This document shows, piece by piece, positions 715-51,607 of a DNA stretch of 64,000 bases. The stretch lies in NCBI GenBank assembly GCA_028753945.1, contig JAPNXP010000003.1, positions 1,860,001 through 1,924,000 of the forward strand, read 5' to 3'. Below the pieces are notes generated by a model. The model was not told the origin of the DNA. It worked only from the letters and a program-made list of their open reading frames with translations, and ran no database searches. A program made the translations under genes and the position numbers. Numbering within the stretch: position 1 is the stretch's first letter; every line of letters starts with the position of its first letter. Source of the DNA: Hexactinellida sp. DTS-2022. Its lineage: Eukaryota > Porifera > Hexactinellida.

Positions 715-2684
715 TTGTTTGTTTGTCCGGATTGTAATAAAGTGATGGTGGAATAGAAACCGCAATTAATATTGGGATATAAACTAACTTTCAAATGTTA
801 TAATTGGTAAACAAATGTTATAATAGGTAAACAAGTATGCTGAACACGAATTTCCCATTTATAAATTTATAATATGAATATTTGTTGTTGTTGTTGTTTA
901 CACAAAATAGGTAAACAAATTAATGAAATTCAAACTCAACCTAGAAGTTAGCTTTCAACGGGTATTATAGGTAAACAAGTATACTGAACACGAATTTCTC
1001 ATTTATAAATTTATAATATTAATATTTGTTGTTGTTGTTTATGTTGCAGGCCAAATGCGTTTCCAGGCGAAACGCGTTTCGCCTAGGCCAAACGCGTTTC
1101 CATTTTAATATAATCCTCATGGGTGTCTATTATTAGATATTGAAATCACTATATGCTATTTATCGTTGATGTGGTAATTAGAGGCTATTATTAAGCAGTT
1201 AATTAAGATCATCCAAGCTCTTCCTTTTCATTCATACACGTATTTAATTATTATTCATTTATACGAATTAACCTAACCTTAGTTATAGTATAGTATTTTA
1301 TTATTATTATTCATTATTAATTAAGGATCAATACAATTTACACAAATTCTAATACTGAGTACTGTGAGTAGCGAATTTTTATATCTAAGTGGCCGATTTT
1401 GTGATTAGTATCTTATGTGACTTATTAACTTATTAATTTTCCAAGTTTGGTTGGTTGCTTGTTATGCTAAGTAAATGTTTGGGGCAATTGGGGCTGTCGA
1501 CATTTCAAAAGTGGCCTGCATATTCCTACCATGTTCCACTTGTGGCACAGGTGGCACAAATTTAAAGTGACTAAGTTAAAAACTAATTGTAGGAATATTT
1601 ATTGTAAGGTGTCTCCTCAAGTAATTTCTTTGTCAACAGTATGACATTTAATGTGTGTACAACAGTGGCGTAGCCAGGGAGGGGCCAGACGGGGCCAGGC
1701 CCCGGTTAGCGCGGCTGAGGCTTGGGGCCCGACCGGCTCAGGATTTCAACCCAGGGACCCTGCTGAAATACATAGTCAGGGCCTGCTGCAAAGGCGCATC
1801 TAGGACAAGGATGGGGAGCAAACATATTCTTCGTCGATACCGTTACTTTACTGTCCTATTATTGTTCAAACCAAATACTCTCGTTCAAAATCTAATTACT
1901 CTCATACTTTCTCGAGCTTTTCTTTTCAAAAGTGTGCAACCTCTATTATCCGAACTATGTACAGTGCCCTACCAAAAGTATTCGTACGCCGCCGATAAAT
2001 TCTGAATTTTAATTATAGATTTGCTGTCGAATTAAATCATACAATTAGCTAAAGGCTCGCACAAGGGTGGGGTTGGTTAACCGATGAGGCTACGGTTACA
2101 ATTCGATTTCTCGCCACGGTTAACTGGTTAACCGCCCATCCTACTCAATACTATAAATCCTTTATAAATTTTGATTATACTACAGAATAAGACTCAGCTC
2201 AGGCTCAGCTGTATATAGTATAACCGCATAAGTATAATAACTGATACATTTCGTGCTTTAGGTAAATTTAAATCAATGTTTTCTAAGAAAATTTATAAGT
2301 GGTGATGAGAAATAGATTTTGGACTACATATTCTGATAAAATTCAAAAAGATTTAATACTTTATACATTAATTTTCCAATAACTCTGCTGATATTCAACA
2401 GACCGGCTAACTGGTTAATAAAATCTCTAACCGTTAACCGAATCCAGCCTTGCCTGCAGGAGCAGGTGCGGCAGGTGTGGCCTTGACCGCAACAATATTT
2501 TAGAAAGCCGCATCAATATTCGGGTACCATTTTGAGTCAAACTGAGATCAATAACTCGACGTCACTTCGCCGCACCAATAATAATTTCCTTGCTATGAGC
2601 CTGTATGAGATTGTGCTTAATAATGGAAGGAAATTAATGTATCTAGAACAATGCACACTATCTACGAGAATTGTTGAGATTAGT

Positions 2685-2762
2685 ACCACAGAACAACCGT
2701 GAAGCGGTTGTTCTGTGGAAATTAGAGGTGTCGAAGCGACCGAGCAAGCGTTGTACGCTAGT
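2685..2762 (+). mobile_element. Helitron-type 3' terminus with hairpins
   Basis: A perfect 14-bp stem (CCACAGAACAACCG with its complement, loop TGAAG) is followed by GAAGCGACCGAGCAAGCG and CGCTAGT. The same hairpin-plus-CTAGT layout recurs at 28034 and 31470, and in mirrored form at 60699. The matching 5' end was not located. Confidence 0.5.
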
Positions 2763-2815
2763 ATTATATAATATTATAGTTAAAAATACTTTGTTGTATG
2801 GGATGCCGTATCCCC

Positions 2816-2816
<1 letters not shown>

Positions 2817-2847
<31 letters not shown>
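2817..2847. repeat. (ATT)n microsatellite
   Basis: About ten uninterrupted ATT units just after a Helitron-type terminus. Confidence 0.9.
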
Positions 2848-2850
<3 letters not shown>

Positions 2851-3384
2851 ATTGTGTGACTAGTAGCAGCAAGAACAATAATGCCCTGGTTTTTCACATA
2901 AACTCTGTGAAAGATTTTACGGGACAAGCCCACTCTAGATCGCTCGCTACGCTCGCTGGGATAAAATTTTGACCCCCTAGATTTTCTTCTGGATTCGCAT
3001 GGGTGAGTGCCCCATGTGTGTGCCCAGGTTGACCTCAAGGTCTGGCTACGCCACTGGTGTACTATGAGACCTATCTAATAGTTGTGTTCTGGATACACAA
3101 CTAACGCAACCATGATTCAAAGCGGATCATCGCCCTGTGTAGCAGCCCAGATTATACCCCCCACCAGAATATACCCGGTGTATAACTAGCCTAGCGGCGG
3201 TCCTAGCCTAGTTTGTACCCCGGGGGTTAAACTGGGCTAGCCCAGAATATTCCTCCTGTCTTCGTTTATAATAGCATGTGCAAAATATAGATTGATTGGT
3301 GTAATCTATGATAGCATTATGTTGTATAAGTTACGGACTGTCTCATAAATAGGAAACCGCCTCAGAGTTCGTTTCAGTCGACAA

Positions 3385-3895
3385 TATATATTTGATTTAA
3401 GTCTTAAGATCGATATTAAGTCTTAAGGTCGATCTTAGTTAAGATCGATCTTAAGACCGAACTTAGAGCTATTCACTAAGAATTAAGTTCGGTCTTAAGA
3501 TCGATCTTAAGACCGAACTTAAAAATAACGTTAAGGTAAATATGATTAGAATACAGCATTATCCTAATTAAATACAAAACTAATGTATAATTTAGTTATT
3601 GTTTATTTATTATTGATCTAGTAAAAATATATAATTCTATATTTTTATTTTTGAGCGCAATTAATGTCAAATTATTAGGAACAAAGAAGAAATATTTTAA
3701 GTTTATTTGAAGTCTAATATCAATCAAGGTAGATTAAATGTTCGATAGATCATAGAAGTACGTTTGAACAACGTTTATGAAGTAATTAGTTAAAATCGAA
3801 TCAAATACAATACTTAAGACACCTCTCTAAGTTGCTTAAGTTCGGTCTTAAGTTCGAACTTAAATCTTAGTGAATACCGATCTTAGTGAATACTA
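3385..3895. repeat. Palindrome cluster with TTAAG/GATC motifs
   Basis: Repeated palindromes such as TTAAGATCGATCTTAAG and TTAAGTTCGAACTTAA occur at both sides (3395-3525 and 3825-3890), with TTCACTAAGA at 3475 and its complement TCTTAGTGAA near 3865. It looks like a small inverted-repeat element with arrays of the same motif in its ends, similar in design to the element at 15248-15855. No clean TSD was seen. Confidence 0.5.
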
Positions 3896-6045
3896 CCGCT
3901 GACTGTACTTGTTTACCTTATTTAACTTTTGGAAGTTAGTTATATCTCCAATATAAATTCGGTTTCTATTCTCCTAACGTTTTAATACAATGCGAATAAC
4001 AAACACAGATGTCCTCCCGACAGCAATTATCCCATATCCTAACAGCTGACACATTATAAGGGTGTTATCCAGGCGTGCTGGGCGCGCCTAAAAGAGCGTA
4101 ATTTGGCAGGATTTTTATCTAGGCGTACAAAATCGATTCTAGGCCTACAATATCGAGAGTTATGCCATCTCTCTAAGTCCATTTTCCGTGGCATTTTTGA
4201 TGGAGGAAAAACATAGTTACTAAACTATTAGTTGTCAGTATGTAATAGTAATGCTACATAAGTCAAACAAGTCACATCGGCCACTTAGATATAAAAATTC
4301 GCTACTCACAGTACTCAGTATTAGAATTTGTGTAAATTGTATTGATCCTTAATTAATAATGAATAATAATAATAAAATACTATACTATAACTAAGGTTAG
4401 GTTAATTCGTATAAATGAATAATAATTAAATACGTGTATGAATGAAAAGGAAGAGCTCGGATGATCTTAATTAACTGCTTAATAATAGCCTCTAATTACC
4501 ACATCAACGATAAATAGCATATAGTGATTTCAATATCTAATAATAGACACCCATGAGGATTATATTAAAATGGAAACGCGTTTGGCCTAGGCGAAACGCG
4601 TTTGGCGTCTTTTCTCAGGCGAAACGCGTTTGGCCTAGGCGAAACGCGTTTCGCCTGGAAACGCATTTGGCCTGCAACATTTACACAAAATAGGTAAACA
4701 AATTAATGAAATTCAAAATCAACATAGAAGTTAGCTTTCAACGGGTATTATAGGTAAACAAGTATGCTGAACACGAATTTCGCATTTATAAATTTATAAT
4801 ATTAATATTTGTTGTTGTTGTTTACACAAAATAGGTAAACAAATTAATGAAATTCAAAATCAACCTAGAAGTTAGCTTTCAACGGGTATTATAGGTAAAC
4901 AAGTATGCTGAACACGAATTTCGCATTTATAAATTTCTAATATTAATATTTGTTGTTGTTGTTTACACAAAATAGGTAAACAAATTAATTAAAATTCAAA
5001 ATCAACCTAGAAGTTAGCTTCCAACGGGTATTATAGGTAAACAAGTATGCCGAACACGAATTTCGCATTTATAAATTTATAATATGAATATTTGTTGTTG
5101 TTGTTGACACAAAATAGGTAAACAAATTTATGATTCAAAATCAACCTAGAAGTTAGCTTTCAACGGGTATTATAGGTAAACAATTATGCTGAACACGAAT
5201 TTCGCATTTATAAATTTATAATATGAATATTTGTTGTTGTTGACACAAATAAGTAAACAAATTAATGAAAATTCAAAATTAACCTAGAAGTTTGCTCTCT
5301 ACGGGTATTATAGGTAAACAATTATGCTGAACACGAATTTCGCATTTATAAATTTATAATATGAATATTTGTTGTTGTTGTTTACACAAAATAGGTAAAC
5401 AAATTAATGAAAATTCAAAATCAACCTAGAAGTTAGCTTTCAACGGGTATTATAAGTAAACAAGTGTGCTGAACACGAATTTCGCATTTATAAAATTCTA
5501 ATATGAGTATTTGTTGTTGTTGTTGTTGTTGTTGTTTACACAAATAGGTAAAAAAATTAATGAAAATTCAAAATCATAACGTGTGAGGAGTAAGTTAACT
5601 TGAGGTGCGTAGTACCGATCTGTCGCAAAGCGACCGAGACCGAAGGGCTCGTCAAAATAGAAATTTATATATGCCAATTACCAATTTCATTATCAGCATA
5701 GTTGTTTCCCCTATAGTAGCCGTTGGAAGCTTCCCTCTAGGTTCATTTTGAATTTAATTAGTTTCTTACAAATTTTTATAAACAACAATGACAACGACGA
5801 TGAATTTTCATCGAAATTTCTAATGCGAAATTCGTTTTCAGCACACTTGTTTACCTATATCAGGCGTCGGCAACCTTATGAGCCTGCGGGCCAGATTGAG
5901 TAATTTACTCGGTTTGTCGGGCCAAGCGATTTACTATCCTTTAGTCTTAATAGTTATTTTCCATTGTAGAATTGTTAATTATGAGTAAATATGCATTGAC
6001 TTATCTTAATAATGTTACCACATTATTATTTATAAAAATATTGTA

Positions 6046-9620: not shown

Positions 9621-11541
9621 CGACCGGGATAAGATTTCATGCCGGGATTGTCAGATTTTTGCCGGGATTCCCGGAATGCAGGGGGATTCGGCTTTGAACA
9701 AATTAGGCCTATGAGTGAATTCGGCCTACGAGTGATTTCGGCCTGAAAATGGGTGAATTCGGCCTTAAGAAATTGGTGAATTCAGCCTTCTTGGAATGAA
9801 AAAAGGTGAAAAGGATCGCTTTCTAATTGACTATAAGTATTATGGATACTGGAGAAAAGAATTAGCCTTCTAATTGACTTGTATAAATTATAGTAAAGAA
9901 TCTCCTTACAAAGTGTGATAAGGATTAATTTGAAATGTACGCTTTTCTAATTGTGATCTATGGATCAGGGATAAAAGCAGGCCCTTTTAAGTGTGAAGGT
10001 ATGAATTATAGTGAAAAGAATGATAAAAAGCTCTCTGATTAGTATCTTGAAAGGGAAAAAGGTGAAAAGAATCCCTTTCTAATTGACTATTATGGATACT
10101 GAAGAAAAGGATTATAATTTTTCTGACAATTAAAATAACTGTAAATCTGTTTGAAAATACCGTAGGCCGAATTCACTCACAAGCCGAGTTAGCCTAAATA
10201 CTGTAGGCCGAATTCACCTAGGCCGAATTCACTGGTAGCTCGAATCGCCCGGTTACCGATTCCCGGCTTGCCGGGATTTTGTCGGGAATAGTACATAAAC
10301 TTACGTAATACACAATTATGTACTTGTATAGTAGTAGGGAAATTCCATGTCAAGTCGACCAGTCATTTCACCACTATCAATCGATTTGACTGTAAATTGC
10401 TGTGTAACAAGCTACAAGCAAGTCTATACTTTCCTCAAAATTTTAGACTAATCGGTTGAGTGGTTTTTGATTTATGAAGTCAGAAATTTTCAATTTTTTG
10501 TTGATTATACAAACATTTTTCAAAATGTTGAAGCACCATCTCACTTCAAACTCGTATAACTTTTGATATAATTATCCAATTCTTTTAAAAATTGCTATAC
10601 TTATGTTTTTATATATGGAGAATTCAAATCAGATGGATATATTAAGTTATCAGTTGTTTTTATTAGTGAAAATTAGAACTGAAACCAATACCGGAAGTAG
10701 AACCGGAACCATGACGTAGCAAAAATGTATATCTTCGGATCTCTTTTATTTTTTGGTAATTTATTCTATGTAGTCTTAAGTCATTGTGTAGAAAATTTCA
10801 TTATGGTTTCCATATCTTCCCATTGAGTTATTCACATTTTTGTCCTCTAACGCTATTTATGTGATAGTACAACTTATTAATGTTCTTTATAAAAATCGAA
10901 TACCGGCTAGAACCTTACTCTATTTTTATCATATTGATAAATATTTCATATTTAAATAATTATTATCACCAGTGTATTATACAGCCATTTGTAAATACGC
11001 TCCTAATCCTGGTCTGATGCAATTTCATACGCCTAAATCACAAATTATTGTTACCGTATAGGAGAGGATTCCAAATTTTCGCGCTCCTAAATTCCAATTT
11101 TCCAAAAATCATACTCCAAAAGGAGCGTCTCGCGCTCCTGGGTAATTCCTTGATTATCACTCATTCCAACACCATTATACAATTGATATACGTATGTATC
11201 AGAAATTTGTGGTTTGTGGTATGTTTGACCTCCGATACACTACCATGTAAATTATAATGCATTAGTATTGTTGCTATGTTTAATAAGAATGCAATTTATT
11301 AAACTATTGAGCTGTGAAGTTAATATTACAGCATAAAAGTTGTGAAACTTGATTATTATCTATTCATTCTATTTATTTGCATCACTTCGAATCTGAATTT
11401 TGAAATCAATTTTTTTTGTTCCCTCTCACTGAAAATTAACTTGTGATGACATTGGAGGTACAGTAAAAAGAGTTACCGCCCGAGCAAGTTTACAGCGACA
11501 AAAGAAGATAATATATATAACTTATTCAAATGTTTAATATA

Positions 11542-12085
11542 CACTAACCGGCCAAAAGTATTTGAACAGCAATAATTTGTATTCAGACATTTGAGGTTAT
11601 ACAAGCATAATAACATTAGCAGATGCAACAAAATGGCTATTTACATGAAACGATATGTAAAGTATAATAAAACAGGAAAATTTTCGAATTTAAATTTTTA
11701 TGGAGGCGTTAAACTCATTAAATATTTAATTTATTATCATTAAGATGCAATGTTAATATATTAATTCTGATAGCAGATTTGAATTTCTCATGGTTAAATG
11801 ACTCTAAGTGCAAAATTTCAAATCAATCCGTATATTTTCTACAGTGATACAGTAACATTTCAATTTGTGCCACTTATGCCACAAGTGGCACGTGGCAGAA
11901 ACACTTATGCCACTTCAAGGATATTTTATGAATTTATTTGAAATCATAATATTTTGTGATGTATATCTATAATAAGATATTTATAGTAATTTCAGAGTAG
12001 TTTAGATAGCCGTTAATAAGTTACTAGACGAGTATTGTGTGTGCATTGAAATCTCTGATGTTCAAATACTTTTGGCTGGCCAGTG
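11542..12085. mobile_element. Tc1/mariner-like MITE, copy 1
   Basis: TIRs are CACTAACCGGCCAAAAGTAT and the complement CACTGGCCAGCCAAAAGTAT, flanked by TA on both sides. A second copy is at 58998-59577. The body carries repeated short motifs (GTGCCACTTATGCCAC) but no ORF. Confidence 0.85.
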
Positions 12086-12319
12086 TACGTGGAGCTCTTA
12101 GATTATTTTGTAGTACACTTAATTATGTTTTAGATATGATAACATCAAAACTATACCAGTGACACGTACTTACCATAAATACACTCCAATAAGTGCAAAA
12201 TCTATAGGAGGAAAGCGAATTAGTGACCAATTAGATTACACAATGACATATGAATTTAAATGAAATCGTGTGACAAACTCTAAATATTCTACACAGCTGC
12301 CATACATAATTAACTATAG

Positions 12320-12570
12320 GTAATTATGTCGTATGGATGTATGACAAAGATTGGTATATTTGTGTGATTAAAGAAGTCTGTGAGGAAGAAGGTGATATAG
12401 AAGTCAGCTTTATGCATCCAAAAGGACCAGGGCGTCCTGAAAATAGTATCTATTGGCACTCAAAAGCAGACGTTTGTTATGTCCCTAAAAATGATGTAAT
12501 AGGCTATATATCCACTCCAAAAACTTCTTCAAAACGTGCAAGGAAGTCAAAATCTCATCGATGGACATGA
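12320..12570 (+). CDS. Exon-like ORF with WYI...VSFMHPKGP...WHSKADVCYVP domain
   Basis: The frame opens at an AG acceptor (ACTATAG ending 12319), runs NYVVWMYDKDWYICVIKEV, VSFMHPKGPGRP, WHSKADVCYVPKNDVIGYI, and ends in a Lys/Arg/Ser tail before TGA. The pattern WYIG-x-V-x(n)-E-x(n)-V-x-FMHPHGP-x(n)-W-x(n)-D-x-C-W-VP occurs at the C-terminus of many uncharacterised, apparently transposon-linked proteins of invertebrates. I recognise the motif from such proteins but know no function. The ORF lies in the centre of the foldback element and is probably the last exon of its lost transposase, or a captured host exon. Confidence 0.55.
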
Positions 12571-12653
12571 AGCTAATTACTGATTTTCAAATGTAGCAAG
12601 AGATTAAATTGTAAATATATAAACGTACGGAATCCATTTGGAAATACAGGATA

Positions 12654-12949
12654 CCCTCGCTAATCCGAACCCTCGCTAGTCCGAACAGGAGATACCTAAA
12701 TATTTTTCATATAAAAGAGGGTAAATCATAAATATTTGTATATATAATACATTGAAATTATACAAAAATAAGTATCAGGTAGTGTACTATATGATTTGTA
12801 TGGATTAAATAGAGTGGGTCGGATTATTGGGGTCTCATTTTATAGATGTCTATAGAAATGTATTACATCCCTACCCAGAACGAATTCACTAATCGGAAGA
12901 GATTTTAGTTGAATCGGAGCACCTATGTTAGGATTAGCAGGGGGTACTG
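12654..12949. mobile_element. pogo-like MITE (TA target)
   Basis: The left end CCCTCGCTAATCCGAACCC and right end AGGATTAGCAGGGGGTACTG are approximate inverted repeats flanked by TA. Related to 6046-6481. Confidence 0.6.
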
Positions 12950-14639
12950 TATATATGAATATTACATCAAAGACAATTATCAAATCATGAATTATAAGCA
13001 ATCTTAATTATTTGAATAATAATGTAAATAACAAATACATTGGTATTAATTAGGCCGAAATAACAGTGTGATAACGGCCATTAGTTAACGTAAGTAAGTT
13101 CACAGTTAATTTGTTCAATCAATTGCATTCCAATTATACATTGCAACAATACTAATGCACTTAATGCACTTAATTAACATGTGTAGTGTATCGGAGGTCA
13201 AACATACCACAAACCACAAATTTCTGATACATACGTATATCAATTGTATAATGGTGTTGGAATGAGTGATAATCAAGGAATTACCCAGGAGCGCGAGACG
13301 CTCCTTTTGGAGTATGATTTTTGGAAAATTGGAATTTAGGAGCGCGAAAATTTGGAATCCTCTCCTATACGGTAACAATAATTTGTGATTTAGGCGTATG
13401 AAATTGCATCAGACCAGGATTAGGAGCGTATTTACAAATGGCTGTATAATACACTGGTGATAATAATTATTTAAATATGAAATATTTATCAATATGATAA
13501 AAATAGAGTAAGGTTCTAGCCGGTATTCGATTTTTATAAAGAACATTAATAAGTTGTACTATCACATAAATAGCGTTAGAGGACAAAAATGTGAATAACT
13601 CAATGGGAAGATATGGAAACCATAATGAAATTTTCTACACAATGACTTAAGACTACATAGAATAAATTACCAAAAAATAAAAGAGATCCGAAGATATACA
13701 TTTTTGCTACGTCATGGTTCCGGTTCCACTTCCGGTATTGGTTTCAGTTCTAATTTTCACTAATAAAAACAACTGATAACTTAATATATCCATCTGATTT
13801 GAATTCTCCATATATAAAAACATAAGTATAGCAATTTTTAAAAGAATTGGATAATTATATCAAAAGTTATACGAGTTTGAAGTGAGATGGTGCTTCAACA
13901 TTTTGAAAAATGTTTGTATAATCAACAACAAAAATGAAAATTTGTGACGTCATAATTCAAAAACCACTCTACCGATTAGTCTAAAATTTTGAGGAAAGTA
14001 TTGACTTGCTTGTAGCTTGTTACACAGCAATTTACAGACAAATCGATTGATAGTGGTGAAATGACTGGTCGACTTGACATGGAATTCCCCAGTATGAGAA
14101 TCTAAATGTCACATTATGAAGTTCACCTATTATTTGGAACTATATGAAGGTACTAAATAGGATGACTAAATAGGATGTACATCATGTATAGATATGTACA
14201 CGTATGTATCTACATTGCAATGTATTGTCTCGTCTACTCGTATAATTGTCAATAAAATGTTTTGGTTCAACACGTAAACTATTGATTCAACAAGTTGTCA
14301 ACTATTGATATTGTGAATGGACCGTATTTCTGAGAGTAAGGTAGCCTTAGGTAGGGTTTCGTCCTAAAAGAATGGTCGGGATTCGGAATAGCGGGTGTCC
14401 AGGATTCTGAAATAATTTAATGTTAATTTCTATAGTGTATAATAAATACGTTTAACCATAAATTAATGGGTAGAATTTTAATCTTTCGGATTTCCACTAC
14501 ATAAAGGTTTTTAAAATTCCCGGCTAGATCCCGGTAAATTCAGGTGTTCCCGGCAATAATCGGGATCCCGGCAAAATAACCAAATCCCGGCAAAACCGGG
14601 AATTAACCGGGATTCCCGGTTGATCCCTAGCAGGGGTAG

Positions 14640-17828: not shown

Positions 17829-19235
17829 ATGCCCAACAGTTGTGCCGTTTTCGGATGCTAAATCAACTACAACGACGATCACCGTGTCCCAGTTTTTAAA
17901 CTACCTACGAAACCAGATGACCTAAGACACAGATGGCTTCAGGTTCTTCGGAGAGACGATTTACAATCATTCAAGGGGGTTTACGTGTGTGTAAATCATT
18001 TTCGCCAGGAGGATGTTGAGTATACTCACAAAGTTCCAAACGGAGATGGTACTTATCGTGAAATTCCAAGAGTCAACCCAAAGCTAAAAGATGGTGCCGT
18101 TCCAGTTTTTCTTCCAGCACACCCTTCAATCTGTTCTCAATCTATTAGCTCCAAAAAGCGCAGATGTGTGTCACCTACCTCAAAAGATGAGGAAATGTTC
18201 AATGAAGCATTAACACTTAGCCTGGCATCTGAGAGCGAAGAGAAAGAGAAATATCATATCAATTGTTTCCAGGATATCCAAGCTAAGTTACCTTTGCTTT
18301 CCCTACCTAAAACATGGTCTTTATGGTACCCAGATGATCATAGTCTAATTTATATGCTACCTCTACTGACAGAACCCAATATCATTGTCAACACCCATAT
18401 ATTAGTGTCCTTCGATTTGTCAGTTAGAGCTTATCGTAATGGAGAAATTTTATCAATTCCAATTTGCTCAATCAGCGATATACGACACCTTGAATCAATT
18501 CTCTGTGAGATTTCTATATCCCCTCGTCCTGTTCTGTCCACTGAATCTGTTTCAAAGACCGTTAATCAGACTTTATCATTAGCGAAGGACAATAGCCAAC
18601 TACTCATTAACAAAGTACTTTCATCTAATGGTGAATTAGAGTAACTGATTCCCTCGAAATATCCAGGCTTCAATTCATCCAATGTCAGCTTGAAAACAGT
18701 ATTGTACCCAAAAACAGGCGGAGGTACAACATCCTCACACAGGTTATGGCACTTAAAGCACATTTAATTTCACCAGCATGTTATAAGTATCTTCAACAAA
18801 TGGCTTGCCTATCTCTGCCTCATGTCAACACTTTGGAGAAGTTGTATTCTTCATTCGGACTTGAGTGTGAATTCTTTCCTTTCCTCAAGCAAGCGACAAA
18901 TTCTTTCACTGAAGCTGAGAAACATATCGTTATGCAAATGGACGAAATTCACGTAAAATCTCATGTCACATATAAAGGAGGCAGGATATGTGGTTCTAGT
19001 CTAAGTCCAGAAGATCCAATAAAGACTGTATTCGCTATTATGGTACCAAGTCTCCAGAAAAAATGTTCTACTATAGTTCGTCTATTACCATGTGCCTCTC
19101 TTTCCGCTGAGAAGATATTCCCCATCATACTCGCTTGTATTAAAGATATCGAAACTTGTGGTTTATGTGTCGATGTAATCTCAACAGATAACTATCCTCT
19201 TAACGTCAAGTTATTCAAACTATTCTCTCCTGTTG
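17829..19235 (+). pseudogene. P-element transposase: THAP domain and first catalytic region
   Basis: The ATG at 17829 starts a THAP zinc finger: CAVFGC near residues 5-10, W near residue 37, CVNHF, and the closing AVPVFLP (18090-18108). An in-frame TAA follows the second Cys (17859). The frame stops again after NGELE at 18642, where KYPGF follows, and it shifts near 18740. It resumes with KYLQQMACLSLP, MQMDEIHVK (RNase H-like acidic residue) and ISTDNYPLN. The exon ends LFSPVG|GTAAG at 19235. P transposases use this THAP domain to bind subterminal DNA. At least three defects make it a pseudogene. Confidence 0.85.
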
Positions 19236-20235
19236 GTAAGCTTGCACAGTGGTTTATTGACAGGGAGTTGGACAATTTTTTACCTATTCTGATCTCTTCA
19301 AAAACGTTTTAATCGTGTTCAGCATAATCGTGAACCTAGGTAACTGTTTTTACAGTTTAAAATTCCGAGTAGAATTAGAAATATGATGCAGTGTCTATAG
19401 TTTCAATGACTAAATAAAATTGAAGAAATTTTGTGGTTAACTATTATGAATCATTTCATGCTCGTTTCGATCACAATTAGCTAATACTTTCACAGTGTTT
19501 AATTATAGTTTATATCATCCTAAAAATGTTGAATACTCTTCATTGAATTATTTCTCCTTTAGTATAATTATCATTGCATATTATGATTAGCTGGAAGTGT
19601 CCGAACTGCTAAATTCCATGTATTGGTATTGCGTAAACTTGTAGTGTCGTGTCGTGTCGTTTTACTAGCACTATTTTTATATAAAGTTTAAGTATATAGC
19701 TTGAATTTTAACCACTTTCCAGCCCCGCGCAACCGCGCGCAAAATATAATCTACTTGTCTATACACGGGAGCTTTGAAGATTTATATGAAGATTTTAATT
19801 TCTTTTTCAAAATTTCATCAATTAGTAAACTAAATGAATAATTTAGAAGCGTGGGATTACCTTTCAACCAAGGAAACTATACGGGTTGCTGTAAATGTAA
19901 TAGAAAATGCAAGGGTGATCAAATGCCAAAATTGGAACAAGAAAAACTGGTCGAACCGTTGATGCTAAAAAAGCTGGTTATTTGACTGGCCTAGGCTCTC
20001 GAATTACATTATCAACTTAATTTATATCTACACCATGCATTTATTTAGAGATGCATATAAATGAATTAGCTCTAGTTTATTTGAACTACTAATTTAGCAA
20101 TTATTTGTGAAATTATGGGAATAAATAAAACACTATGACGTCATAACTTAAAAATTTGAAGCCGTACTAATTTTCTGAGTCCATAAATGGATTCACAGGT
20201 ATAGATAACCCATGAGTATATAATACATTTTATAG
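19236..20235 (+). other. Intron of the P transposase
   Basis: It runs from the GTAAG donor at 19236 to TTTTATAG at 20235. It contains GTGTCGTGTCGTGTCG and CCGCGCAACCGCGCG motifs that echo 22060-22155, so it may hold part of another P-type non-autonomous copy. Confidence 0.55.
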
Positions 20236-34360: not shown

Positions 34361-34436
34361 AGCAGCCAGATGGATTAACTCAAGATAGTCCTCCCTTGGA
34401 TGTTTGGCACCCTTCGTGATTCAAACTTTGGTTTAG

Positions 34437-35830
34437 AAAGGATTTTCTAGCATTTCTTAAGCAAGCGACTTCAGACTTTAGTGATAGAGACCGCAATGTA
34501 ATTTTACAAATGGACGATATACATGTCAAGTCCACCGTTGCTTATATGGGAGGAAGAATACCTGGATATTCTTTGTTACCTAATGAACCAATTAAAACTC
34601 TTTTCGCTACAATGGTATCAAGCTTATCCAGAAAGTGGTCTCAAATTGTCCGCCTAATTCCATGTTCTTCTAACTCTGCTGACGAGATATTAGCAGTTAT
34701 TAAATCTGTTATTTGTGATGTAGAATGTTGTGGTCTGACAGTGCAAGTCATCTGCACTGACAACTATCCACTTAACGTTAGTTTTTCAAAAATATTCGAC
34801 ATATAACAAGACTTTATCTCCAAAAGTGATTCAAACAATGATCCAGAAAGAAAACTCTTTTTAAACTTTGACTTCCTCCACATAATTAAATCAATTAGAA
34901 ATAATTGGCTCAATTTAAAAGATTACGACCGTGCGTTTGCCTACCCAAATGCTTTAATTTTCCTAACATTGACGACACACACAAAGTAAATATTGCTCAA
35001 TTCCAAGATGTTCGATTACTTTACAAAATTAGCAAACTTCGCTCCTCAAACTGACACATCGTTTAACTGCAAAGGCTTGTTGGCCCACTGTCAACCTGGC
35101 TTTGAAAATATTTGATACATCAACACTTACAGCTCTTTTATTTACAACTCTAAGCGAACAGATTTTGAATCCCGAAAGACATGCGAATTTCTAGACATTA
35201 TTATAAAAGTATGGAAGATATTCAATATAATTACTACACATAAACACATACGACTTAATTAAGAGCTTTCAAGACCTCTTCACAATAATGATGAACGTAT
35301 AAATTTCCTCAGGCTCATTATCAACTTGCTTGCACGTTGGAGATCTCGTGAGGGTAAATATGGAAAATTATGTCTTCAGACATTACTAGCTTTTCCCATT
35401 CATGTCTAGCGCTGATCGAAATAGTAAATCTTCTGACTCATAACTGTGGTTTCGATTATGTACTTACATCACGACCACAAGATAACCCGATTGAACATCA
35501 CTTTGGGTTGTACCGTATGGTGTCAGGTGCACAATATCATTTCACTTTTACTCAAATACTTGAAAGCGACGGCGTATTAAACTATCAAGCATACTGAAGA
35601 GTTTCTAAAAAAAAACAATCGAATTACGTGAATCTAAAAGGTATAATCGAATCATTTCCTTACCACTTGATGAACCATCAGATTCATTAAATTTAGACAC
35701 ATATCGCCTAGCAATGGAACCTTTCCGACCCTCACACTGGAAACTTCACTGCTTCAATCAATTGCCTTTGTAAAAGCTTATGCAGTCCATATGTATTTCA
35801 AACAATATACTAAGTGCAAAATCTAGTTTG
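34437..35830 (+). pseudogene. Second P-element transposase, decayed (no THAP left)
   Basis: Fragments in order: FLKQATSDF, MDDIHVKSTVAYMGGRIPGY, ICTDNYPLN (34437-34806), LNFDFLHIIKSIRNNWLNLK (34855-34920), CGFDYVLTSRPQDNPIEHHF GLYRMVSGAQY (35440-35540) and LLQSIAFVKAYAVHMYF (35735-35800). They match the order of the copy at 17829-22916 and even keep the NPIEHHFG segment missing there. Many stops and shifts. The start and the THAP domain are absent; the sequence preceding 34437 belongs to the opposite-strand unknown ORF. Confidence 0.75.
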
Positions 35831-49125: not shown

Positions 49126-49188
49126 ACAACACTGTTAGAGACTAATGAATATTTGTTGGAAGAACATACAGGGATTTTTAATGGGTCC

Positions 49189-49701
49189 TAATTATCGGTC
49201 TAACTAATTTAGTTAAAAGTCTACCAAAATTCGTTATACCTCTAACAAAATTTGTTAAATGTCTAACAGATTTGCCATTACCAAAATTACTAAAAAGTCT
49301 AACAAAATTAATGAAAAGTCTAACAAAATTAATGAAAAGTCTAACAAATTTAGTTAAAAGTCTAACAAAATTAATGCAAAGTACAGAATTACTGATACAG
49401 TTCATATAGTAAATTATATGGGTAAGGTTTAGATGATTTTGTTAGACTTTTCATTGATTTTGTTAGACTTTTCATTAATTTTGTTAGACCTTTCATTAAT
49501 TTTGTTAGACTTTTCATTAATTTTGTTGGACTTTTCATTAATTTTGTTAGACTTTTAGTAATTTTGTTAGACTTTTCATTAATTTTGTTAGACTTTCTAG
49601 TAATTTTGGTAATAGCATATCTGTTAGACATTTCACAAATTTTGTTAGAGGTATAACGAATTTTGGTAGACTTTTAACTAAATTTGTTAGACCGATAATT
49701 A
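49189..49701. mobile_element. Palindromic MITE built of ~21-bp GTCTAACAAAATTAATGAAAA units
   Basis: TIRs begin AATTATCGGTCTAAC at both ends. Each arm carries many tandem copies of the unit, so both arms are arrays in opposite orientation around a ~45-base centre near 49410. It ends 18 bp before the TSD of the intact MULE. No ORF: apparent frames are the repeat translated (a TKLMKS-type repeat). Confidence 0.75.
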
Positions 49702-49731
49702 TAACCGATTTTTAATTACTGATTATGATAT

Positions 49732-49850
49732 CTTCCCACTTCGTCAATTCCCATTTCGTCAATTCTCATTTCGTCAATTCCCATTTTGTCAATTCCCATA
49801 TCGTCAATTTCATATTTCGTCAATTCCCATTTCGTCAACGTTGACTAAAT
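49732..49850. repeat. Left subterminal array of the MULE
   Basis: CCCATTTCGTCAATT-type units of about 15-17 bp, ending in GTCAACGTTGAC. They are likely transposase binding sites by analogy with other MULEs; this is inference. Confidence 0.8.
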
Positions 49851-50028
49851 GGGAACTTGTATACACATAATAGTTTATGTATAACGCTCAAAAACAATTG
49901 TTCAATGGTGAATAGTTACCTTTGTCACCTACTGGGGCTTCACCGATGGTTATTTTCTTATATAATCAGTGTACAAGCAATGAAAGTATATCTTGCTAAT
50001 TGTTATTAAATATATTTACCTGGTTTGC

Positions 50029-51408
50029 ATGTTCGCCGAGACGACAAAGGGAAAACGTGCAGTAATCCATGAAGGATATTTGTATCAGAAAATTCGAGTT
50101 AATGGTCCTAAGTCATGGTGGAGATGTCAAGATAGGAGCTGTAATGGGAGGATAAGTATGGATGATGACATTGTGATTAACGTGTCAGGAATTCATCATC
50201 ATCCTCCCAATATGGCGAAGATTACTGCACAGACTGTAATAAGAAAAATGAGAAAAAGAGCTATTGAAGAAACTACATCAATCCCTAAAATATATGCTGA
50301 AGAAATAGCGGCTGTTTCAGGGTATGAAGGAGTCGAACATTCAGAATTAGCGATCAATTTACCACAGTTTCCCGCTATAAAATCGTCACTTTATCGAGGC
50401 CGGATGACAAAATATCCTTCACTACCACAAACTATTCAAGATATTACTTTTGGTGGTGATTGGACTCGTACTATTCAAGGGGAAGACATGTTTCTTGCAG
50501 ACTCTGGTGAGAATGATCCTGAAAGAATTATAATGTTTGCAACAAAGAAAAATTTGGAAATATTATGTAACTCGGACTGTATTTATCTCGATGGAACTTT
50601 CAAATCATGTCCAGATTTATTTTATCAGCTCTTCACTCTCCATGCTTTCGTAGAGGGGAAACAATTCCCGTTTGTTTATGTTCTTCTACCTGCAAAGACA
50701 AGAATTTTATATGATCGAATGTTTCATATGCTGAAAGAAGCTTGTTGGAATAGCAACTTTCAAATGAATCCAAAGAGAATAATGTCAGACTTTGAAAGTT
50801 CTTTGATCCCATCAATTGCAATTCAATTTCCAGGATCCAAGCATAAAGGTTGTTTTTATCATTTTTCTCAAGCAATCTGGAGGAAAGTTCAAAGTCTAGG
50901 TTATCAAACCGAGTACTTGAACAATGATCAATTTAGGGTATTTATACGAGAGATGATGGCACTTGCTTTCATTCCTGAGTGGGAAGTAAGCATTGCGTTC
51001 CAGTCACTTTGTGCAGATACACCTGAGGGCCTCAATGTTGGCGAATTTATAGATTATATGGACAGGACGTGGATAAATGGAACGTTCAAACCTGATTTGT
51101 GGAACGTTTTCTACTCGAATGGACCTCGCACAAATAACCATCTAGAGGGATGGCACAATAGATTGAACAGCTTTTTGGGAAGGCGGCATCCTAATATTTA
51201 TCAATTGATGCAATTTATTACAAAAGAACAAGCTGTAATTGATATTGAAATTATCCAACTACAAGCTGGTGCACTAGCTCCACCAAAGAAGGAGATGTAC
51301 ATTGCACTAGAATGTAGGATTGAAAATTTACGTCAGAAATATACGCGCGGTGAATTGGATATCGATGAATATTTGCTCAGGATAGCAAATAATTTAGCAA
51401 ATAGATAA
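50029..51408 (+). CDS. FLYWCH + MULE transposase, intact, 459 aa
   Basis: From ATG 50029 the reading frame has no stop until 51406. Residues ~15-60 form a FLYWCH-type zinc finger: GYLYQKIRVNG, WWRCQDRSCNGRI, then HHHPP. Residues ~180-300 form the MULE RNase H-like core: CIYLDGTFKSCPDLFYQLFT (first D), FPFVYVLLPAKT, MSDFESSLIPSI (second D), FPGSKHKGCFYHFSQAIWRK (CxxH). NGPRTNNHLEGWHNRLNSFL (E) follows at ~360. The C-terminus is a coiled Glu/Lys-rich helix. It catalyses cut-and-paste of its own element; FLYWCH presumably binds the terminal arrays. No intron is needed. An upstream in-frame extension lacks an ATG, so the start at 50029 is preferred. Confidence 0.9.
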   Translation: MFAETTKGKRAVIHEGYLYQKIRVNGPKSWWRCQDRSCNGRISMDDDIVINVSGIHHHPPNMAKITAQTVIRKMRKRAIEETTSIPKIYAEEIAAVSGYEGVEHSELAINLPQFPAIKSSLYRGRMTKYPSLPQTIQDITFGGDWTRTIQGEDMFLADSGENDPERIIMFATKKNLEILCNSDCIYLDGTFKSCPDLFYQLFTLHAFVEGKQFPFVYVLLPAKTRILYDRMFHMLKEACWNSNFQMNPKRIMSDFESSLIPSIAIQFPGSKHKGCFYHFSQAIWRKVQSLGYQTEYLNNDQFRVFIREMMALAFIPEWEVSIAFQSLCADTPEGLNVGEFIDYMDRTWINGTFKPDLWNVFYSNGPRTNNHLEGWHNRLNSFLGRRHPNIYQLMQFITKEQAVIDIEIIQLQAGALAPPKKEMYIALECRIENLRQKYTRGELDIDEYLLRIANNLANR

Positions 51409-51497
51409 TTGATATTTTGAGTGTTTTGTTGAGTTGTGTTAACGTGTTTTCTCAAGAATTATTAACCTATTTGAGTTTACTTGTAGTCTAGTAATTA

Positions 51498-51597
51498 TGT
51501 CCCATTTCGTCAACGTTGACGAAGTGGGAATTGAAGAAATAGCAAGTTGACAAAATGGGAATTGACGAAGTGAGAATTGGCGAAATGGGAATAATTC
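51498..51597. repeat. Right subterminal array of the MULE
   Basis: Inverted relatives of the left array (GACGAAGTGGGAATTG, GACAAAATGGGAATTG, GGCGAAATGGGAATAA), starting at the GTCAACGTTGAC palindrome. Confidence 0.8.
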
Positions 51598-51607
51598 CTG
51601 ATTATGA

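What the first reader, a model, noticed from the sequence alone, without database searches (positions are those of the whole stretch)
49729..51597. Compact, apparently intact MULE with array-type termini
A 1.87-kb element carries one uninterrupted 459-codon FLYWCH-MULE transposase, an identical 10-bp duplication (CTGATTATGA) and mirrored arrays of TTCCCATTTCGTCAA units that end in the same GTCAACGTTGAC palindrome. Everything around it is decayed, so it is young and may be active. Array-type ends suggest multiple transposase binding sites, possibly bound by the FLYWCH finger.
Basis: partly seen in the sequence, partly recalled or inferred. Interest (0 to 1): 0.75.

Follow-up and report, generated by a model that had tools for sequence, protein, structure and literature searches.

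The report
Intact jumping gene with repeat-array ends
This is a small, structurally complete cut-and-paste jumping gene of a kind already described in mosquitoes and nematodes, whose ends are built from stacked copies of a short DNA word that its own enzyme probably grips; it is a tidy new example rather than a new kind of thing.

Summary
Window 49729-51597 is a 1,869-bp element between identical 10-bp direct repeats. It carries one uninterrupted 459-codon transposase gene (FLYWCH finger plus MULE, Mutator-like, domain), with the catalytic and zinc-binding positions I could name intact. Both ends are arrays of a 15-bp unit: seven units plus one reversed on the left, five plus one reversed on the right. 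The reported 12-bp palindrome is the centre of a 30-32-bp near-palindrome where the reversed unit meets its neighbour.

Best reading: an autonomous cut-and-paste MULE of the Phantom/Muta type with Foldback-style composite ends. This plan is in print: Muta1 of Aedes aegypti, active in yeast, and Tm1 of root-knot nematodes. Binding of many units by the finger is plausible but unproven; it was shown for Galileo's THAP finger, not for FLYWCH.

'Everything around it is decayed' is wrong: a second array-ended element with its own identical 10-bp duplication ends 22 bp away. 'Young' is supported by the open frame, but the two ends differ at 9-15% of positions, and copy number could not be tested: no genome is held and the host is unidentified. 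New member of a known kind; low-moderate interest.

The parts
49719..49728 (+). left target-site duplication CTGATTATGA
   Evidence: identical to 51598-51607; only two copies in the window
49729..49732 (+). TATC between duplication and array, not mirrored at the other end
   Evidence: read directly
49733..49838 (+). left array: seven units of the 15-bp repeat, consensus TTCCCATTTCGTCAA (one extra base at 49808)
   Evidence: tandem score 161; units listed
49824..49855 (.). left inner near-palindrome: last forward unit head to head with one reversed unit (49841-49855) around GTCAACGTTGAC
   Evidence: 15 of 16 pairs; inverted pair I18
50029..51408 (+). transposase gene, one open frame, 459 codons plus stop
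50032..50202 (+). FLYWCH finger, residues 2-58; C33, C38, H56, H58
   Evidence: PF04500 8.9e-08, whole profile 1-62/62; 2rpr_A 9e-06; residue numbers
50581..50871 (+). MULE transposase domain, residues 185-281, with D188, D254 and the C275-x2-H278 pair
   Evidence: PF10551 1.3e-13; residue numbers
51100..51147 (+). W358 to E373, taken as the conserved tryptophan and the third catalytic residue
   Evidence: residue numbers; assignment by motif and spacing against Muta1, not by alignment
51500..51529 (.). right inner near-palindrome around GTCAACGTTGAC; its forward unit is 51499-51513
   Evidence: 14 of 15 pairs
51516..51591 (-). right array: five reversed units (one degenerate, 51531-51545, and one extra base at 51546)
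51592..51597 (+). TAATTC between array and duplication
   Evidence: read directly
51598..51607 (+). right target-site duplication CTGATTATGA
49183..49706 (.). context, not part of the MULE: neighbouring array-ended (foldback) element without a recognisable gene, 21-bp units of unrelated sequence; flanked by GATTTTTAAT at 49173-49182 and 49707-49716

Best explanation
An autonomous, structurally complete cut-and-paste DNA transposon of the Mutator superfamily, of the FLYWCH-MULE (Phantom/Muta) type, with Foldback-style composite ends. Shown here: duplication, composite inverted ends, one open gene, finger and catalytic residues in place. Inferred: the transposase is made from the single open frame; its N-terminal FLYWCH finger binds the 15-bp units, several molecules per end; the two loaded ends pair, the DDE core (D188, D254, E373) cuts the element out and joins it to a staggered target, and repair leaves a duplication of about 10 bp. 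The number of units per end can drift by slippage or unequal exchange, which would explain 8 against 6 units. The reversed innermost unit at both ends would seat two molecules head to head and may mark the inner limit of the binding platform or damp transcription of the gene, whose ATG is 174 bp inside the left one.
For: Domains above curated cut-offs; FLYWCH similarity to a solved FLYWCH1 finger (2rpr_A); D188/D254/E373, C275-x2-H278 and W358. The interval from the second D to the H is 24 residues both here (254 to 278) and in Muta1 (283 to 307), where alanine at D214, D283, E419, H307 or W401 abolished or nearly abolished activity in yeast. Identical duplication. The unit array is confined to the element. 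Muta1 (FLYWCH, 145-bp ends with nine 12-bp repeats, mobile in yeast) and Muta5 (nine 15-bp repeats) share the plan; Tm1 also shares unequal arrays and unmirrored outermost bases. [quoted passage not shown]
Against: No second copy or empty site could be examined: no genome is held, and no relative was found in IMG/VR or GTDB contigs. The ends differ at 9-15% of positions. Other catalytic intervals differ from Muta1: D to D 66 against 69, D to E 119 against 136, W to E 15 against 18 (from the residue numbers). Muta5, with three identical copies, did not move in yeast, so intactness does not prove activity. No binding data for a FLYWCH finger on a MULE end appear in what I read; Tm1's authors note that some FLYWCH domains act through other proteins rather than on DNA directly. 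The structure model without relatives was unusable (mean pLDDT 35.9), so the third catalytic residue rests on motif and spacing.
Confidence: 0.85

Rival explanations
1. A recently immobilised copy: structurally whole but no longer, or never, mobile in this host (silenced, or with end arrays too altered to be paired). This concerns activity, not identity, and is compatible with the best reading's classification.
For: Unequal arrays with degenerate units (L6, 49809-49823, and R4, 51531-51545, depart from consensus at 2 and 3 positions) and 9-15% divergence between ends; Muta5 failed in yeast; Tm1 was judged currently inactive and decaying by its authors.
Against: An open 459-codon frame with the key residues; under assumed indel-to-substitution ratios of 0.05-0.15, neutral drift since the last selection is at most about 1.1-2.3%. 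Muta1 transposase moved all five natural non-autonomous elements tried, despite differing end lengths.
Confidence: 0.35
2. The gene has been taken over by the host as a DNA-binding protein and the surrounding ends are leftovers.
For: FLYWCH proteins are reported as repeatedly derived from transposons in animals (passages).
Against: Composite ends, identical duplication and catalytic residues are kept; from general knowledge, domesticated copies tend to lose these.
Confidence: 0.04
3. The arrays are not transposase sites but products of slippage, or sites for another factor (promoter, host protein), with recognition lying elsewhere in the ends.
For: Unit number varies and the outermost bases are not mirrored, as expected if only part of each end matters; slippage makes arrays readily (general knowledge).
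Against: Six of 15 unit positions (2, 6, 9, 13, 14, 15) are identical in 14 of 14 copies and five more (1, 3, 8, 11, 12) in 13 of 14, at both ends and in opposite orientation; the same plan recurs in other families. Recent slippage could also give such uniformity, so this is not decisive.
Confidence: 0.2

Closest known systems
Muta1 and Muta5 of Aedes aegypti (PMC5225508; Results section and other passages read)
   Same: 13 of 14 families there have an N-terminal FLYWCH finger before the DDE core; Muta1 and Muta5 have long ends with 12-bp and 15-bp tandem repeats and 8-9 bp duplications; Muta1 is classed there as a type 2 Foldback element; D-D-E, CxxH and W residues
   Different: They are 3.2-3.5 kb with two or three exons and 504-554 aa; this one is 1.87 kb, one open frame, 459 aa; Muta1 has a 10-bp imperfect palindrome as terminal motif, here the palindrome is at the inner edge of the arrays
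Tm1 of Meloidogyne (PMC3169594; abstract, one Results section and passages read)
   Same: FLYWCH at 5-66 and MULE at 197-294 of a 496-aa protein (here 2-58 and 185-281 of 459); ends of variable numbers of about 14-bp units; unmirrored outer motifs; duplications mostly of 8-10 bp (45 of 53); one additional unit at the inner edge
   Different: Tm1-A's finger lacks the last histidine, here the C2H2 set is complete; Tm1 has a purine-rich motif before its additional inner unit, here that unit is simply reversed (the orientation of Tm1's was not stated in what I read); unit sequence differs
Phantom, group 20 of the MULE tree (PMC6446971; passages and part of Table 1 read)
   Same: FLYWCH finger in some members, duplications of 8-10 bp, ends of 18-613 bp
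   Different: placement by a tree was not done here; FLYWCH occurs in other groups too
Galileo of Drosophila (PMC3688188; abstract read)
   Same: tandem repeats inside long ends, with multiple binding sites for the transposase's zinc-finger (THAP) domain
   Different: P-superfamily transposase with a THAP finger; analogy of mechanism only

Membership tests
Mutator-like element (MULE) | MULE transposase domain with D, D, E and CxxH | tested here: met
   PF10551 51.6 bits against a cut-off of 27.6; D188, D254, C275-x2-H278, E373; E by motif and spacing only
Mutator-like element (MULE) | target duplication of about 8-11 bp | tested here: met
   CTGATTATGA twice, 10 bp, boundary not certain
Phantom (group 20) | FLYWCH finger N-terminal to the MULE domain (present in some members) | tested here: met
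   PF04500 32.6 bits against a cut-off of 23.6, residues 2-58
Phantom (group 20) | place in the Phantom clade of the transposase tree | not tested
   no relative was found in the collections searched; FLYWCH is listed for members of groups 1, 16 and 17 as well, so the finger alone does not decide
Foldback-type (composite) ends | long inverted ends made of tandem units, variable in number between ends | tested here: met
   7+1 and 5+1 units; inverted pair of 93 nt, 86%
active autonomous element | several near-identical copies, empty sites or new insertions | not testable with these tools
   no genome held; one copy in the window

The most novel reading that the evidence does not exclude
The reversed innermost unit at both ends is a distinct functional site: a head-to-head dimer seat that ends the binding platform and acts as an operator for the transposase gene, so that the same finger both pairs the ends and limits its own supply; ends with forward units only would then be less well paired or over-expressed.
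Probability: 0.2. Interest if true: 0.45.

Novelty: new member of a known kind. Interest (0 to 1): 0.22.

Why it matters
It is a compact FLYWCH-MULE with one open frame and well-ordered binding-site candidates. At 1,869 bp it is at the short end for complete MULEs: one table for arthropods gives 1,875-9,972 bp (passage of PMC13359780), though the summary of the same paper gives 1.4-10.0 kb (start of abstract in the listing). If active, it would be a convenient small test system for whether a FLYWCH finger binds end arrays and how many units are needed. As a kind of element it is already known.

Tried and rejected
Searching the window's own genome: no genome is held. Relatives by protein: IMG/VR, 1 pattern stretch, 0 confirmed; GTDB contigs, 8 pattern stretches, 0 confirmed. 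Array or palindrome DNA patterns (exact, so diverged arrays would be missed): 0 in IMG/VR, 0 in GTDB contigs. These collections hold viral and prokaryote DNA, so the blanks say little about a eukaryote element. Host identification: 0 Rfam matches at gathering score, 0 tRNAs with the bacterial setting. Pfam on 10 other stretches gave transposon-type hits in 4 of 10 (THAP; TNP-like RNase H in two; rve below its curated cut-off) and nothing in 6 of 10. Fold prediction without relatives: mean pLDDT 35.9, so no fold search was made. Second copy in the window: blastn found only the element and its own ends; tblastn up to E 10 gave three further hits at E 4.1-9.6, taken as chance. Dating by end divergence was rejected because the two ends of elements of this class commonly differ (Tm1); dating by the duplication was rejected because 20 bases bound divergence only to about 15%.

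Paper searches: six. No search used words for a reversed or head-to-head inner unit, so I claim no absence from print. The original Phantom paper (Marquez and Pritham 2010) was not read; I know it through citations in the passages and from recall.

Full report
What is there. The element at 49729-51597 is real and as described. It has an identical 10-bp direct duplication on both sides, inverted ends made of a 15-bp unit, and one open gene of 459 codons. Of 18 places in the window that match the unit with at most three mismatches, 14 are in the element; the four others each have three mismatches, and 2.65 are expected by chance. The longest stop-free run in 30 Markov versions of the window was 167 codons. 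A 10-base shared word between two random 25-mers of the window came up in 25 of 20,000 draws, and in 149 of 19,609 draws from the repeat-rich neighbourhood.

The ends. Read inward, the left end is TATC, seven units, then one unit in the opposite direction; the right end is GAATTA, five units, then one in the opposite direction. Across the 14 units, positions 2, 6, 9, 13, 14 and 15 never vary. In both ends the second unit out from the palindrome is the irregular one (49809-49823 and 51531-51545), each preceded, read inward, by one extra base (49808 and 51546), so the ends look like copies of one ancestral end with gain or loss of units. A pairing chosen by me that leaves two left units without partner gives 8 differences in 90 positions (counted from the matrix); in register there are 14 differing columns in 93.

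The protein. Pfam gives FLYWCH at residues 2-58 and MULE at 185-281, both above their curated cut-offs. The finger aligns to the solved FLYWCH1 finger 2rpr_A at 9e-06, the only chain found at E up to 1. The catalytic positions are D188, D254 and, by motif and spacing, E373; the CxxH pair is C275/H278 and the conserved tryptophan is taken as W358. In Muta1 the corresponding residues D214, D283, E419, H307 and W401 were tested by alanine change and activity was abolished or nearly so. The interval between second D and H is 24 in both; the other intervals differ (D to D 66 here, 69 there; D to E 119 and 136; W to E 15 and 18).

How it most likely works. Shown in sequence: duplication, composite ends, intact gene. 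Inferred: several transposase molecules bind the units of each end through the FLYWCH finger, the loaded ends pair, the DDE core cuts and joins, and repair leaves the duplication. Muta1 shows that this type of element can excise precisely and reinsert with 8-9 bp duplications in yeast; five natural non-autonomous derivatives with differing ends also moved, though none as often as the artificial one with 250 bp of each end. Galileo, in another superfamily, shows that a transposase zinc finger can have repeated sites within long ends (abstract). No source I read shows a FLYWCH finger bound to a MULE end.

Age. The intact frame is the best clock: 4.7% of substitutions in it would make a stop, and with indel-to-substitution ratios of 0.05-0.15 (assumed) an intact frame bounds neutral divergence to 2.3-1.1% at 95%; with stops alone the bound is 4.7%. 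The duplication adds little (bound 15%). End divergence is not an insertion clock in this class. Whether the family is active now cannot be told: only one copy is in the window and no genome is held.

Surroundings. The statement that everything around is decayed does not hold. At 49183-49706 there is a 524-bp element made mostly of inverted 21-bp arrays, without a recognisable gene, with an identical 10-bp duplication GATTTTTAAT and outer ends that agree at 155 of 166 columns. It ends 22 bp before the MULE; its right duplication ends at 49716, and two bases separate it from the MULE's left duplication. Its unit is unrelated in sequence, so it would presumably need another transposase. At 1042-4679 a 3.6-kb element with arrays of about 20 bp and inverted stretches of 60 bp (100%) and 328 bp (99.7%) sits in a 142-bp satellite with a 4-bp duplication TTTA; joining its flanks gives a satellite unit (96.9% over 229 columns with two gaps; my cut left out two bases). 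Against its youth, a plain global alignment of the outer 360 bases of its ends agrees at only 311 of 408 columns, which I put down to unequal arrays. Other stretches do look broken: P-like transposase pieces in separate frames and an integrase piece whose rve match is below its cut-off.

Comparison with the known. Ten of the twelve long-ended MULE families in Aedes aegypti have short subterminal tandem repeats of 9-15 bp, and 13 of 14 families have an N-terminal FLYWCH finger. Tm1 is described as Phantom-type with Foldback ends. So the combination is established. What differs is size, the single open frame, the complete C2H2 set (against Tm1-A) and the reversed inner unit. I file it as a FLYWCH-MULE with Foldback-type ends; Phantom membership proper is untested because no tree was made.

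Verdict. Ordinary in kind, well preserved, useful as a small test element. The most novel reading not excluded is a dedicated role for the reversed inner unit.

Noticed in passing
49183-49706: Second array-ended element, no recognisable gene, 21-bp units in inverted arrays, identical 10-bp duplication GATTTTTAAT; two bases separate its right duplication from the MULE's left duplication, so two foldback-type insertions sit side by side.
   Followed up: partly
1042-4679: 3.6-kb element with array ends containing GGCGAAACGCGTTTCGCC-type palindromes, inverted stretches 99.7-100% identical, inserted in a 142-bp satellite with 4-bp duplication TTTA; longest stop-free run 138 codons, so apparently not autonomous.
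   Followed up: partly
9701-10233: Possible third array-ended element with units around TAGGCCGAATTCAC in opposite directions, about 530 bp in span; flanks hold short repeats but no duplication was settled.
   Followed up: partly
10337-14090: Inverted stretches of 996 bp, 96.9% identical, about 1.8 kb apart; no direct duplication of 7 or more bases found at the edges examined.
   Followed up: partly
17862-19312 and 34420-34806: Pieces of THAP/P-like transposases (THAP domain; TNP-like RNase H) in separate frames.
   Followed up: no
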